Below, piece after piece: positions 54,362 to 62,848 of a DNA stretch of 64,000 nucleotides (position 1 is its first letter; each line of letters starts with the position of its first letter). The notes under the pieces were generated by a model that saw nothing but the letters and a program-made list of their open reading frames with translations, was not told where the DNA came from and searched no databases. Where the stretch lies: positions 868,001 to 932,000 of the forward strand of contig NZ_AP017313.1 in assembly GCF_002355435.1 (NCBI RefSeq). Reading direction: 5' to 3'. A program made the position numbers and the translations under genes. The stretch comes from Mucilaginibacter gotjawali. Lineage in GTDB: Bacteria; Bacteroidota; Bacteroidia; Sphingobacteriales; Sphingobacteriaceae.

Positions 54362-54397
54362 GGAAAATCTCTGTATTTATATTAGACTTTTCTTTTT

Positions 54398-54461
54398 TCT
54401 TTACTAGGGCCAAACGTTTTTCTTTACTAGGGCCAAACGTTATTTATCCAAATTTATCCAA
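54398..54461. repeat. Tandem duplication at the left border of the defence-like cassette
   Basis: TCTTTACTAGGGCCAAACGTT occurs at 54398 and again at 54421 (period 23). It is followed by a doubled ATTTATCCAA at about 54442-54461. No gene is supported between 54362 and 54652. The following DNA is clearly more AT-rich, so this may be a recombination scar at an insertion border. Confidence 0.6.
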
Positions 54462-54652: not shown

Positions 54653-55774
54653 ATGAGTGAAGAGAATTTCATAGCTGAAGACGAAATCGAAAAGGAAGAT
54701 ATTGGCGCCAACCTATTAATGGAAAAACCATTTGATCCGAAGAAAATCGATATTAAACAGAAAACATTGTCAATTGACTTAATTGTGAAGAGACTGGCCG
54801 CTAAGCCGCCAGAAATTGATCTTTATCCAGATTTTCAGCGAAAGGATGATTTATGGGATCCCGCCAAGCAAAGCCGACTGATCGAATCCATTTTAATAAG
54901 TTTTCCGCTGCCAGCATTTTATTTCGACGGGACTAACGACAATAAATGGCTAGTTGTCGACGGCCTACAAAGATTGAGTTCTTTTCGAAATTTCATGGTC
55001 ACTAAGTCTTTAAGATTGGTAGGGCTAGAGTTTTTACACAATTTAAAAAATAAATCATTTGATGAGTTACCTAGAACGTTGCAAAGACAAATTGAAGAAA
55101 CTCAAATTGTAGCATATATCATAAATCCGGGAACTCCTGAAGAGGTGAAATTTAATATTTTTCAAAGAGTAAACACAGGTGGGTTGTTAATGGAACCTCA
55201 AGAAATTCGTCACGCACTTAATCAAGGCATCCCGGCAAAGTTTGTTGCAGAACTTGCATCAAGTCCGGAATTTATAAGTGCAACTTCCGGAAAAATCAAA
55301 TCTGATAGAATGCTTGACAGAGAATTTGTCACTAGATTTGTGAGTTTTTACATAAAACCTATTTCCGAATATAAACCCGATTTGGATACATATATGAGCC
55401 AAAAAATGGGAGAATTAAAGACGCTCAGCTCTGATCAAAGGACTGATGTGAAATCCAACTTCGTCAAAAGCATGAAATTAGCCAAGGAAATATTTTCTCA
55501 TTGGGCTTTTCGAAAAGTGTTTAATAAAAATGAAAGGCTTAAACCAATAAATAAAGCACTTTTCGAAGTATGGAGTGTTGAACTAGCTAAGCTTTCGGAT
55601 GAGCAACGCAAAATAATAAAGATACGAAGAGATACAATATTTGACAATTTTGTGAAGCTAATGAACAGTGATGAAACGTTCGTTGCAGCGGTTACTGCAA
55701 GCACAGGAGATAAAACCAAGGTTTTATACCGTTATACTACAATTGAAAATTTGATAAAAGAAACTTTAAAATAA
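54653..55774 (+). CDS. DUF262 (GmrS/ParB-Srx-like) domain protein
   Basis: This 373-residue protein has the DUF262 core at about residues 38-190: PDFQRKDDLWDPAKQSRLIE and ISFPLPAFYF, then the nucleotide-binding DGxQR motif at 103-107 (VVDGLQRLSSF), and FNIFQRVNTGGLLMEPQEIR. In GmrSD, SspE and BREX-linked proteins this domain hydrolyses NTPs and controls a nuclease. The HNH/DUF1524 nuclease usual after it is absent here. The C-terminal half (about 200-373) is helical and not recognised. It is the first gene of a three-gene cassette; the ATPase starts at its stop (TAATG overlap). The region has visibly lower GC than its neighbours. Confidence 0.9.
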   Translation: MSEENFIAEDEIEKEDIGANLLMEKPFDPKKIDIKQKTLSIDLIVKRLAAKPPEIDLYPDFQRKDDLWDPAKQSRLIESILISFPLPAFYFDGTNDNKWLVVDGLQRLSSFRNFMVTKSLRLVGLEFLHNLKNKSFDELPRTLQRQIEETQIVAYIINPGTPEEVKFNIFQRVNTGGLLMEPQEIRHALNQGIPAKFVAELASSPEFISATSGKIKSDRMLDREFVTRFVSFYIKPISEYKPDLDTYMSQKMGELKTLSSDQRTDVKSNFVKSMKLAKEIFSHWAFRKVFNKNERLKPINKALFEVWSVELAKLSDEQRKIIKIRRDTIFDNFVKLMNSDETFVAAVTASTGDKTKVLYRYTTIENLIKETLK

Positions 55775-56871
55775 TGATTTCAAAAATTGAAATAAGAAAT
55801 TTCAAATCTTTAAAAAAGATAAGGTTCGATGCTAGGCAGTTATGTATATTGATGGGGTTGAATGGAATGGGCAAATCTTCGCTTATTCAAACTATATTGC
55901 TGCTTAGGCAAAGCAGGGACATATATAGAGGAAATCTTAGTTTAAACGATTATTTAACTGAAATCGGTAAAGGCAAAGATGCGATGTACCAATATAGTGT
56001 CAATGAAACAATTGAATTCGACTTCGAATTTACAGAACAAGAACCATTAAAATGGGCTTTTAAATATAATCCTGAAAGCAATTATCTGCAAAGTGATCAA
56101 AATTATGATTTTAATATTCTAAATACCTATTCGTTATTCAATGCCAACTTTCAATATCTACGGGCAGAGCGCATAGGGCCTCAGACTGACTATCAAACAT
56201 CATATTCGGAAGTGATAAATGATAGACAGATTGGATCAGACGGAAGACTTGCAGTACATTATTTAAATACTTTCGGGAACGAAAAAGTTAGCGACAAGTC
56301 CTTACATCATCCGAAAGCAAAATCGAGTGTATTAATTCATCAAGTTGATGCGTGGTTAGGTGAGATAACACCTGGCGTGAAACTTAATACAACTGAAATT
56401 CCCGGTACAGATAAGGTCTTGTTAGATTTTCAATTCGAAGCGGGATCTTTATATACAAGCCGTTTTAGACCAAAGAATGTCGGTTTTGGATTGTCATATG
56501 TTCTTCCTGTGATTGTGGCTTTACTATCCACGAAACAAGATAAACTTCTTATAATCGAGAACCCAGAATCTCACATTCATCCAAGAGGGCAGTCTGAATT
56601 AGGAAAACTAATTGCGTTGTCCGCGCAATCAGGTACCCAGTGCATAATTGAAACACATAGCGACCATATTTTAAATGGAATCCGTGTTGCAATAAAAGAG
56701 AAACTAGTCGAGAAGAGTAACGTAGGTATCTCCTATTTCGAAAGAATTACAGAAAATGAAGAACAATTTACAAAAATGATTTCTATTAAGGTAGACGAAA
56801 ATGGAGAGTTAAGTGACTATCCTAAAAACTTCTTAGACGAATGGAGTAATCAATTATTGAAACTTATTTAA
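55774..56871 (+). CDS. AAA ATPase with C-terminal DUF3696 (ABC/SMC-like)
   Basis: This 365-residue ATPase of the AAA_15/21 class begins ISKIEIRNFKSLKKIRF, with Walker A G28-LNGMGKSS at 28-36. The central region (about 45-230) has no classical coiled coil. PKNVGFGLSYVLPVIVALLS is the ABC signature-like segment, LLIIENPESHIHPRGQSEL is Walker B with catalytic Glu, and CIIETHSDHILNG is the switch His. The C-terminal ELSDYPKNFLDEWSNQLLKL is the DUF3696 tail. Such ATPases serve as sensor or motor subunits in defence systems such as Septu, PARIS and related loci. It overlaps the DUF262 stop by one base and lies 7 bases before the third gene. Confidence 0.92.
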   Translation: MISKIEIRNFKSLKKIRFDARQLCILMGLNGMGKSSLIQTILLLRQSRDIYRGNLSLNDYLTEIGKGKDAMYQYSVNETIEFDFEFTEQEPLKWAFKYNPESNYLQSDQNYDFNILNTYSLFNANFQYLRAERIGPQTDYQTSYSEVINDRQIGSDGRLAVHYLNTFGNEKVSDKSLHHPKAKSSVLIHQVDAWLGEITPGVKLNTTEIPGTDKVLLDFQFEAGSLYTSRFRPKNVGFGLSYVLPVIVALLSTKQDKLLIIENPESHIHPRGQSELGKLIALSAQSGTQCIIETHSDHILNGIRVAIKEKLVEKSNVGISYFERITENEEQFTKMISIKVDENGELSDYPKNFLDEWSNQLLKLI

Positions 56872-56878
56872 TTACTCT

Positions 56879-57736
56879 ATGCAACTAATTTGTAATGAAT
56901 TATCATTTCTCCCGTTGGCGGAAAACGAAAGTATTGCCGAGGAAAGATTTTATCAATTGATTAAGACATTCAAAAAAGCAAAAGAGAGATATGGATTCAA
57001 TCATATTCGCTTTCCGCTAAATCACCATGACCAACAAGTTACTTTAAAGCGAAACTTTTATGAAGTGGTTTCAAATTTCAGTAATCAAACATATAAGAAC
57101 CTCATCGTCGATCTTTGTAAGTCCCCATTCATAGACGACTTAGAAGACGATGAATTAAACATGTTCTATTCAAGTAAATACGAAATTATCGATGAGGATG
57201 TTCCGACGAAAGCATCCCCATTGGGCTTGCCGGTAGCGTTTATTAAATCGTCACCGGCTGTAAGCTTAAACTCCCATCCATTTTGGAGAAAAAAGAAGAT
57301 ATCAATATTAAAGTCCAGTGAAAATGAAATCGAAAATGCTATTTTGATTGTTTATAACATCTGTTTAGAAACGGACGTTGATGCCAAAGAGCTTTCCGAA
57401 TGGGCGGATAACTTTTTACCGAGTGAGTTAACTACGGAAGAAGAAATAAAAAAATATTTAAACTACACAAAGTATTCCATTGTATTTTCCCCGGAATTTT
57501 TGGTGCAATTTTTCGAATGGAAAACTAACGACACCGATAAATACAAGTACTTATTGCAGTTATTAAAGGATGTTGAGGTACATCCTTTTACAGGGGGCAT
57601 GGGACAAACAGAAAACTTAAAGTATAGGGGCAAAGAAGCCTCAAAAAGGGTGACTCAGGCAGATCGACTCAGTTATACATTGGATAATAATTTAGTAACA
57701 TTTTTGGCGTGCAAAGGACATTATAAATTTCATTAA
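56879..57736 (+). CDS. Unrecognised protein with C-terminal YoeB/RelE-like mRNA-interferase domain
   Basis: This 285-residue protein belongs to no full-length family I know. Residues 1-198 are unassigned (ERFYQLIKTFKKAKERYGFN, NLIVDLCKSPFIDDLEDDEL). Residues 199-285 align with E. coli YoeB from its residue 3 to its last, with offset 198 and only compensating one-residue gaps: Trp214/W16, Lys230-Asp231/K32-D33, Pro236-Phe237/P38-F39, Glu245/E46, Lys248/K49, Arg263/R65, Cys278/C80, His281/H83, Tyr282/Y84. E46, R65, H83 and Y84 are the catalytic residues. No YefM-like antitoxin gene is beside it; the N-terminus or the ATPase may restrain the toxin. The fold match is from recalled sequence, not a search. 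Confidence 0.8.
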   Translation: MQLICNELSFLPLAENESIAEERFYQLIKTFKKAKERYGFNHIRFPLNHHDQQVTLKRNFYEVVSNFSNQTYKNLIVDLCKSPFIDDLEDDELNMFYSSKYEIIDEDVPTKASPLGLPVAFIKSSPAVSLNSHPFWRKKKISILKSSENEIENAILIVYNICLETDVDAKELSEWADNFLPSELTTEEEIKKYLNYTKYSIVFSPEFLVQFFEWKTNDTDKYKYLLQLLKDVEVHPFTGGMGQTENLKYRGKEASKRVTQADRLSYTLDNNLVTFLACKGHYKFH

Positions 57737-61474: not shown

Positions 61475-62848
61475 ATGATGGGCAGGAATGAGCTTTCAGA
61501 ACGATTGGTGATAGCCAACGAAGAAAAAGCAAGACTGGAAGCAGAGCTTATCCTTGCGAATATTGAACTGGATTTTCAGAACGAAGAAAAGAAAAAGCGC
61601 GCTGCTGAACTTAACCTGGCGAATATTGAGCTGGAATTTCAAAACAGGGAGAAACTTAACCGCGCCAGGGAACTCATCATTGCTAACAGGGAACTTGATT
61701 TTCAGAACGAAGAAAAAGGCAAACGTGCCGCTGAATTGATCATCGCCGGCAAGGAACTGCTTTTTCAAAATGAGGAAAAGGAAAAACGTGCAGCGGAGTT
61801 ACTGTTAGCTAATACCGAACTGGTTTTCCAGAATGCAGAAAAAGAAAAACGGGCGGCCGAACTGATCATCGCCAACAAGGAGCTGCTTTATCAAAATGGT
61901 GAAAAGGAAAAGCGCGCGGCGGAACTGATCATCGCCAACCTGGAGTTGATTTTTCAAAATGAAGAAAAAGAAAAACGGGCAAATGAGCTGATCATTGCCA
62001 ATAAAGAATTGACTTACCAAAACGGCGAAAAAGAGAAACGGGCGGCCGAATTGATTATTGCGCTGAAAGAGTTGGGTTACCAGGATGAAGAAAAAGCAAA
62101 ACGCGCTGCTGAACTGATTATTGCTAACCGTGAGCTGTTGATCCAACAGCAGGAAAAAACAAGACGGGCGGCTGCAGAGGCAAAGAAAGATGAATTCTTT
62201 AATATGGTTAGTCATGAATTCAAGACACCATTGACCAATATAAAAGCCATAAACCAGCTGCTTGAAAAAACAACTGACCGGGCCAATAAACATTATCCAT
62301 TTATTTTAAATGCCGGCCATAGCATTAAACGGCTTGAAAAACTAATTGCGGACCTGCTGGATGTAACCAAGATCAACTCAGGCCAGATAGACCTGAATAT
62401 CGCGGCGTTTTATTTCCCGGATGCACTCACCAACAGTATAGCCAATATCCAGCTTACGGCAAACAACCATGAGATTATGCTGGAAAATTCGGCAGATATC
62501 CTGTACGCCGGCGACCAGTTCAGAATTGAACAGGTACTGATTAACCTGTTAACTAATGCCATCAAATATTCTCCTGAGGCCGGCAAGGTATTGGTAAAAG
62601 CTAAAATTGAATCGGGCGACCTGGTGGTGACCGTGCAGGATTTTGGTATTGGGATTGCAAAACACGAGATCGATCAATTATTTCAGCGTTTTTACAGGGT
62701 AAGTGAAACGGCTATGCTTTTCCAGGGCGTCGGCTTGGGTCTGTTTATTGCGTCCGAAATTGTCAAAAAACATAATGGCAGGTTTACTATTACCAGTGAG
62801 CCGGGCGAAGGCAGCAGTTTTAGTTTTACACTGCCATTGCCCGCCTGA
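61475..62848 (+). CDS. Sensor histidine kinase with ten 21-residue coiled-coil repeats
   Basis: This 457-residue kinase has no membrane helix. Residues 21-230 are ten tandem 21-residue units of the form RAAELIIANKEL-x-x-QNEEKEK; three heptads per unit imply a long parallel coiled coil. HisKA follows with His247 (FFNMVSHEFKTPLTNIKAIN), then HATPase_c (VLINLLTNAIKYS, DFGIGIAKHEIDQLF, GVGLGLFIASEIV). The repeat type is known in Bacteroidota kinases and phosphatases. The input is unknown; the coil may transmit or measure a partner's signal. Two adjacent ATGs (61475, 61478) follow AAGAGG, an unusually good ribosome-binding site for this group. No response regulator is adjacent. Confidence 0.92.
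   Translation: MMGRNELSERLVIANEEKARLEAELILANIELDFQNEEKKKRAAELNLANIELEFQNREKLNRARELIIANRELDFQNEEKGKRAAELIIAGKELLFQNEEKEKRAAELLLANTELVFQNAEKEKRAAELIIANKELLYQNGEKEKRAAELIIANLELIFQNEEKEKRANELIIANKELTYQNGEKEKRAAELIIALKELGYQDEEKAKRAAELIIANRELLIQQQEKTRRAAAEAKKDEFFNMVSHEFKTPLTNIKAINQLLEKTTDRANKHYPFILNAGHSIKRLEKLIADLLDVTKINSGQIDLNIAAFYFPDALTNSIANIQLTANNHEIMLENSADILYAGDQFRIEQVLINLLTNAIKYSPEAGKVLVKAKIESGDLVVTVQDFGIGIAKHEIDQLFQRFYRVSETAMLFQGVGLGLFIASEIVKKHNGRFTITSEPGEGSSFSFTLPLPA
61535..62164 (+). repeat. Ten in-frame 63-bp tandem repeats encoding the coiled coil
   Basis: The units encode RAAELIIANKELxxQNEEKEK with small variations (last residues NGEKEK, NREKLN, DEEKAK). At the DNA level neighbouring units differ at synonymous sites, so the protein pattern has been kept by selection instead of by recent slippage. 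Confidence 0.88.

What the first reader, a model, noticed from the sequence alone, without database searches (positions are those of the whole stretch)
54653..57736. Candidate new defence system: DUF262 - DUF3696 ATPase - YoeB-fused effector
Three tightly packed genes (stop/start overlap TAATG, then a 7-base gap) form an island that is visibly more AT-rich than both flanks and sits between a beta-propeller and a rhamnosidase gene. DUF262 and DUF3696/AAA proteins are established parts of restriction, Septu-like and PARIS-like systems. The HNH/DUF1524 nuclease that normally partners DUF262 is missing; instead the last gene ends in an intact RelE-fold mRNA interferase. Inference: infection sensed by the DUF262/ATPase pair unleashes ribosome-dependent mRNA cleavage. 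I know of no described system with this set of parts.
Basis: partly seen in the sequence, partly recalled or inferred. Interest (0 to 1): 0.92.

Follow-up and report, generated by a model that had tools for sequence, protein, structure and literature searches.

The report
Menshen anti-phage operon with YoeB effector
These three bacterial genes are an anti-virus system of an already described kind (Menshen, also reported as ptuXYZ), whose last protein carries an RNA-cutting toxin domain that probably shuts down protein production in infected cells; it is a good specimen, not a new system.

Summary
Three tightly packed genes lie at 54653-57736: a DUF262 protein, an AAA_15/DUF3696 ATPase, and a two-domain protein ending in an intact YoeB-type RNase. 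GC is 35% against 44% for the window.

The claim of novelty fails. PADLOC models call the genes NsnA (E 1e-133), NsnB (5e-115) and NsnC (6e-33, N-terminal part only), that is, Menshen (Millman 2022). The same three-gene set, including the C-terminal YoeB domain, was published by Gerdes (mBio 2025) as "ptuXYZ", without a link to Menshen in its text. A 2025 paper on Menshen domain polymorphism could not be read here.

The trio recurs as a unit in 8 further Bacteroidota loci; YoeB catalytic positions are invariant in the 8 proteins aligned. Other Menshen loci carry related N-domains with unrelated C-terminal domains, so YoeB is one of several exchangeable effectors.

Possibly new: in 6 of 9 trios it adjoins restriction-modification genes. 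In three it sits between hsdS and hsdR, in a fourth before an hsdR relic, and in two after a C5 methyltransferase. prrC, a translation-blocking nuclease, is also inserted in an hsd region. The window's copy has no R-M neighbour.

Likely mechanism: NsnA/NsnB sense infection and release NsnC to cut ribosome-bound mRNA (inferred).

The parts
54653..55774 (+). nsnA (= ptuX): DUF262/GmrSD_N protein, 373 aa, probable sensor or nucleotide switch
   Evidence: Pfam GmrSD_N 2.7e-21; PADLOC NsnA 1.2e-133
54821..55216 (+). DUF262 match (residues 57-188), including the DGLQR motif at residue 103
   Evidence: D103 G104 L105 Q106 R107 invariant in the 8 aligned sequences
55774..56871 (+). nsnB (= ptuY): AAA_15/AAA_21 ATPase with C-terminal DUF3696, 365 aa
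   Evidence: Pfam; PADLOC NsnB 4.9e-115, AriA 2e-26
55855..55881 (+). Walker A, GLNGMGKSS (residues 28-36)
   Evidence: G28 N30 G31 G33 K34 S35 invariant
56554..56568 (+). Walker B region, IENPE (residues 261-265)
   Evidence: invariant
56879..57736 (+). nsnC (= ptuZ): two-domain effector, 285 aa
56879..57466 (+). NsnC N-terminal domain (residues 1 to about 196), shared with NsnC proteins that carry other C-termini
   Evidence: PADLOC NsnC PDLC03895, residues 1-185, 6.3e-33; same pattern in relatives
57485..57724 (+). YoeB-type RNase domain (residues 203-282); E245, R263, H281, Y282 at catalytic positions
   Evidence: Pfam 1.5e-11; PDB matches; invariant in 8 sequences

Best explanation
A Menshen anti-phage operon (nsnABC) of the YoeB-effector type that Gerdes named ptuXYZ. 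NsnA (DUF262, a ParB/Srx-like nucleotide-dependent module) and NsnB (an ABC/OLD-type ATPase related to AriA of PARIS) detect infection or the state of DNA and hold NsnC in check. On activation, the C-terminal YoeB domain of NsnC cleaves mRNA in the ribosomal A site and stops translation, so the phage, and probably the cell, cannot proceed. Shown here: gene identity, conserved motifs, recurrence as a unit, and exchange of the NsnC C-terminus between loci. Inferred: sensing, the holding complex, ribosome dependence, abortive outcome.
For: PADLOC matches over full-length NsnA and NsnB and the N-terminus of NsnC, in Menshen gene order. Nine distinct loci hold the complete NsnA-NsnB-NsnC(YoeB) trio: the window, L027-L033 and L066; all 7 loci found by the NsnC scan have A and B directly upstream. 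YoeB catalytic positions E245, R263, H281, Y282 are invariant, and the YoeB domain is the better conserved half of NsnC (mean pairwise 64% against 43%). Walker A/B of NsnB and DG(L)QR of NsnA are invariant. Other NsnAB loci carry a third gene that PADLOC also calls NsnC but with a different C-terminus. R-M genes adjoin 6 of 9 trios. Literature: deletion or mutation of the DUF262 gene abolished Menshen protection (Millman 2022, as reported in PMC10952713); same trio as ptuXYZ in PMC11980606; CARF-RelE Cami1 is a described case of a switched RelE domain cutting A-site mRNA in defence (PMC11229360).
Against: No defence assay of any YoeB-type NsnC is known to me. The window's copy has no R-M or other defence neighbour in the genes examined. 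The predicted model of NsnC is of moderate confidence (mean pLDDT 67) and that of NsnA is poor (60), so no complex or inhibition mode could be examined. No member was found in the viral contigs scanned with NsnC or NsnA.
Confidence: 0.78

Rival explanations
1. PrrC-like guard of restriction enzymes: the trio monitors a resident restriction-modification system and unleashes NsnC when a phage disables it or changes DNA modification, rather than sensing the phage directly.
For: In L028, L032 and L033 the trio lies between hsdS and hsdR; L030 has an hsdR relic directly after it; in L029 and L031 it directly follows a C5 cytosine methylase. prrC is likewise inserted in an hsd region, silenced by the type I enzyme and activated by a phage anti-restriction peptide (PMC2610378). 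The window's genome has one HsdR elsewhere.
Against: Window, L027 and L066 have no R-M neighbour. HsdR of L028 and L033 are 89% alike while their trios are only 44-47% alike, so trio and R-M do not co-evolve tightly. Clustering with R-M may only reflect defence islands.
Confidence: 0.3
2. A type II toxin-antitoxin-like module for stress or maintenance, with NsnB (or the NsnC N-domain) as antitoxin and no phage role.
For: YoeB is a classical TA toxin; no separate antitoxin gene is present; AriA, a relative of NsnB, is named an antitoxin in PDB entries.
Against: Three-gene NsnA/B/C order, R-M co-location in relatives, and tested Menshen defence. The N-domain belongs to NsnC families with other C-termini.
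Confidence: 0.12
3. NsnA or NsnB is itself a DNA nuclease and does the restriction; the YoeB domain is secondary.
For: Gerdes suggests a nuclease role for PtuX by fold resemblance; OLD-type nucleases share the NsnB ATPase family (own knowledge).
Against: No HNH/DUF1524 and no nuclease domain was found in NsnA or NsnB by Pfam; DUF262 is an NTPase in GmrSD, BrxU and SspE.
Confidence: 0.1

Closest known systems
ptuXYZ (Gerdes, mBio 2025, PMC11980606)
   Same: Same gene order and domains: DUF262 without DUF1524, PtuA-like ATPase, N-terminal domain plus C-terminal YoeB-related domain; includes a Flavobacterium example
   Different: No structural difference seen. That text does not mention Menshen and predicts a nuclease role for the DUF262 protein
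Menshen, NsnABC (Millman 2022; PADLOC models of 2023)
   Same: NsnA, NsnB and the NsnC N-terminus match by profile, in the same order
   Different: The NsnC C-terminus: no PADLOC NsnC model covers the YoeB half
Cami1 (CARF-RelE)
   Same: A RelE-superfamily RNase domain put under control of a defence sensor; ribosomal A-site cleavage
   Different: CARF/cA4 control within type III CRISPR; no DUF262 or ATPase
PARIS (AriA-AriB)
   Same: AriA ATPase is a relative of NsnB (2e-26) and controls a separate nuclease partner (own knowledge)
   Different: No DUF262 protein; effector is TOPRIM, not RelE-fold (own knowledge)
PrrC with EcoprrI
   Same: Translation-disabling nuclease inserted in an hsd region, like the trio in L028, L032, L033
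   Different: Single protein, tRNA anticodon nuclease; the window's copy is not in an hsd locus

Membership tests
Menshen (NsnABC) | NsnA: DUF262 protein of the NsnA family | tested here: met
   PDLC03877 E 1.2e-133, residues 10-372
Menshen (NsnABC) | NsnB ATPase | tested here: met
   PDLC03878 E 4.9e-115, residues 1-365
Menshen (NsnABC) | NsnC effector | tested here: met
   PDLC03895 E 6.3e-33 for residues 1-185; the C-terminal YoeB part is outside all NsnC models
Menshen (NsnABC) | Order A-B-C in one operon, recurring | tested here: met
Menshen (NsnABC) | Phage protection | not testable with these tools
   needs plaque assays
ptuXYZ | Third protein with C-terminal YoeB-related domain | tested here: met
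ptuXYZ | PIN-like N-terminal domain without catalytic residues | tested here: inconclusive
   N-domain of the model has low confidence and is barely covered by PDB matches
YoeB RNases | Full YoeB domain with catalytic Glu, Arg, His, Tyr | tested here: met
   E245, R263, H281, Y282; assignment to E. coli YoeB E46/R65/H83/Y84 from own knowledge
YoeB RNases | Ribosome-dependent mRNA cleavage | not testable with these tools
   biochemistry needed
Type IV restriction (GmrSD, BrxU, SspE) | DUF1524 HNH nuclease | tested here: not met
   no such match in the three proteins
PrrC-type R-M guard | Location within or next to an R-M operon | tested here: inconclusive
   met in 6 of 9 trios, not in the window

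The most novel reading that the evidence does not exclude
YoeB-type Menshen is a guard of restriction-modification: nested between hsdS and hsdR or behind a C5 methylase, it senses loss or override of the R-M enzyme and answers with ribosome-dependent mRNA cleavage, a multi-gene functional analogue of PrrC with exchangeable effectors.
Probability: 0.25. Interest if true: 0.65.

Novelty: new member of a known kind. Interest (0 to 1): 0.35.

Why it matters
It shows that two literature names, ptuXYZ and Menshen, describe one system, and that NsnC is a carrier with exchangeable C-terminal effector domains. The hsd-nested relatives offer a direct way to ask whether Menshen watches restriction enzymes. 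The window's copy itself adds one more Bacteroidota member.

Tried and rejected
A new system: rejected by PADLOC matches and Gerdes 2025. Phage- or plasmid-borne copies: none found in viral contigs or plasmids. An empty insertion site: the beta-propeller flank is conserved in part of the genus (22 of 61 genomes, own included), but in the ten relatives fetched neither the trio nor GH106 follows it, so the exact insertion boundary could not be read. The 23-base tandem repeat upstream as a transposition or CRISPR trace: its 16-base core (ACTAGGGCCAAACGTT) occurs nowhere else in the genome, so no support. Fold of the NsnC N-domain and of NsnA: models too weak to judge; PIN-like resemblance is quoted from Gerdes, not confirmed. 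N-terminal extension of NsnA in L029 and L031 (about 190 aa): no Pfam match. Li et al. 2025 (gkaf357) is not held, so whether it already joins YoeB or hsd nesting to Menshen is unknown.

Full report
Observation. The stretch is 35.1% GC against 43.8% for the window, about 4 SD below other stretches of that length. Pfam gives GmrSD_N (DUF262) for gene 1, AAA_15/AAA_21 and DUF3696 for gene 2, and a full-length YoeB_toxin match at residues 203-282 of gene 3. No HNH/DUF1524 is present.

Identity. PADLOC models name them NsnA (1.2e-133), NsnB (4.9e-115) and NsnC (6.3e-33), the three proteins of Menshen (that Nsn denotes Menshen is own knowledge). The best NsnC match stops at residue 185: no PADLOC NsnC model covers the YoeB half, here or in four relatives. 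The YoeB half is nevertheless real: phmmer against the PDB gives an S. pneumoniae YoeB at 6e-9, and the predicted model's residues 199-282 align to YoeB structures at Z about 10 (model mean pLDDT 67).

Prior description. Gerdes (mBio 2025, PMC11980606) describes 'ptuXYZ': a DUF262 protein lacking DUF1524, a PtuA-like ATPase, and a two-domain protein with a C-terminal YoeB-related domain, in 17 operons, proposed as defence. This is the same set of parts. The word Menshen does not occur in that main text. Menshen itself was tested: mutation or deletion of the DUF262 gene abolished resistance (Millman 2022, as reviewed in PMC10952713).

Recurrence. An NsnC scan of genome contigs returned 7 relatives at 48-52% identity, each with NsnB and NsnA directly upstream: a Porphyromonadaceae MAG, Aequorivita, Mucilaginibacter galii, a Flavobacterium MAG, Sinomicrobium and two MAGs labelled only Bacteroidetes and Bacteroidia. 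An NsnA search of 395 phylum genomes added L066. With the window that makes nine distinct trios. In the genus, 2 of the 60 relatives searched hold a full-length NsnC. E245, R263, H281 and Y282 are invariant in the eight sequences aligned, as are NsnB Walker motifs and NsnA DGLQR. The YoeB half is more conserved (64% mean pairwise) than the N-domain (43%).

Exchangeable effector. Among 17 phylum-sample loci with adjacent NsnA and NsnB (L064-L068, L070-L081), only L066 has the YoeB type. Of six non-YoeB third proteins scanned, five match NsnC models over nearly their full length, with different C-termini, and the L073 protein matches none; in the L068 protein the C-terminal part also matches a CARF-DUF2103 model. 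Components also recombine: L032 and L030 are 82% alike in NsnC and 74% in NsnB but only 46% in NsnA.

Restriction-modification context. In L028, L032 and L033 the trio lies between hsdS and hsdR (in L033 with two extra genes between hsdS and nsnA); L030 has an hsdR relic right after nsnC, its upstream side being the contig end; in L029 and L031 the trio directly follows a C5 cytosine methylase, and L031 also has a Vsr-type gene convergent to nsnC. That is 6 of 9, a small and non-random sample. The anticodon nuclease prrC is also inserted in an hsd region and is silenced by the linked type I enzyme until a phage anti-restriction peptide appears. This makes a guard role worth testing but does not show it: window, L027 and L066 have no R-M neighbour, and trio and HsdR diverge independently (89% HsdR identity between L028 and L033, 44-47% for the trio).

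Mechanism. Best supported: NsnA/NsnB form the sensor and brake, NsnC the effector; activated NsnC cuts ribosome-bound mRNA. The precedent for a defence-switched RelE-family domain is Cami1. Sensing, brake and outcome are inferred; no experiment on a YoeB-type NsnC is known to me.

Verdict. Real, correctly read in anatomy, and ordinary in kind: a new member of Menshen/ptuXYZ. The joining of the two names and the hsd nesting are the useful additions, with the caveat that Li et al. 2025 may contain either.

Noticed in passing
L028 795-9832; L032 594-9780; L033 2-9823; L030 2464-3783: Menshen-YoeB trio nested in type I R-M operons between hsdS and hsdR (relic of hsdR in L030).
   Followed up: partly
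L029 1922-4863; L031 1880-4873: C5 cytosine methylase directly upstream of an NsnA with a roughly 190-residue N-terminal extension that has no Pfam match; possibly a DNA-modification reader.
   Followed up: partly
L031 6821-7647: A Vsr-type endonuclease and a separate YoeB-like TA toxin lie beside the trio.
   Followed up: partly
L068 and L072, third gene: In L068 the C-terminal part of NsnC matches a CARF-DUF2103 model of PADLOC, suggesting an effector domain shared between Menshen and CARF proteins; L072 has a similar-looking C-terminus by eye.
   Followed up: partly
window 54394-54439: Perfect 23-base tandem duplication TTTTTCTTTACTAGGGCCAAACG upstream of nsnA; its 16-base core is found nowhere else in the genome.
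   Followed up: partly
G000:C1:4152408-4153397 (L106) and G000:C1:4744933-4745544 (L135): The genome holds a second DUF262 gene of NsnA-like type and one HsdR, both far from the window.
   Followed up: no
window 61475-62848: Histidine kinase with an N-terminal array of near-identical roughly 20-residue coiled-coil-like repeats (EKEKRAAELIIANKEL...).
   Followed up: no
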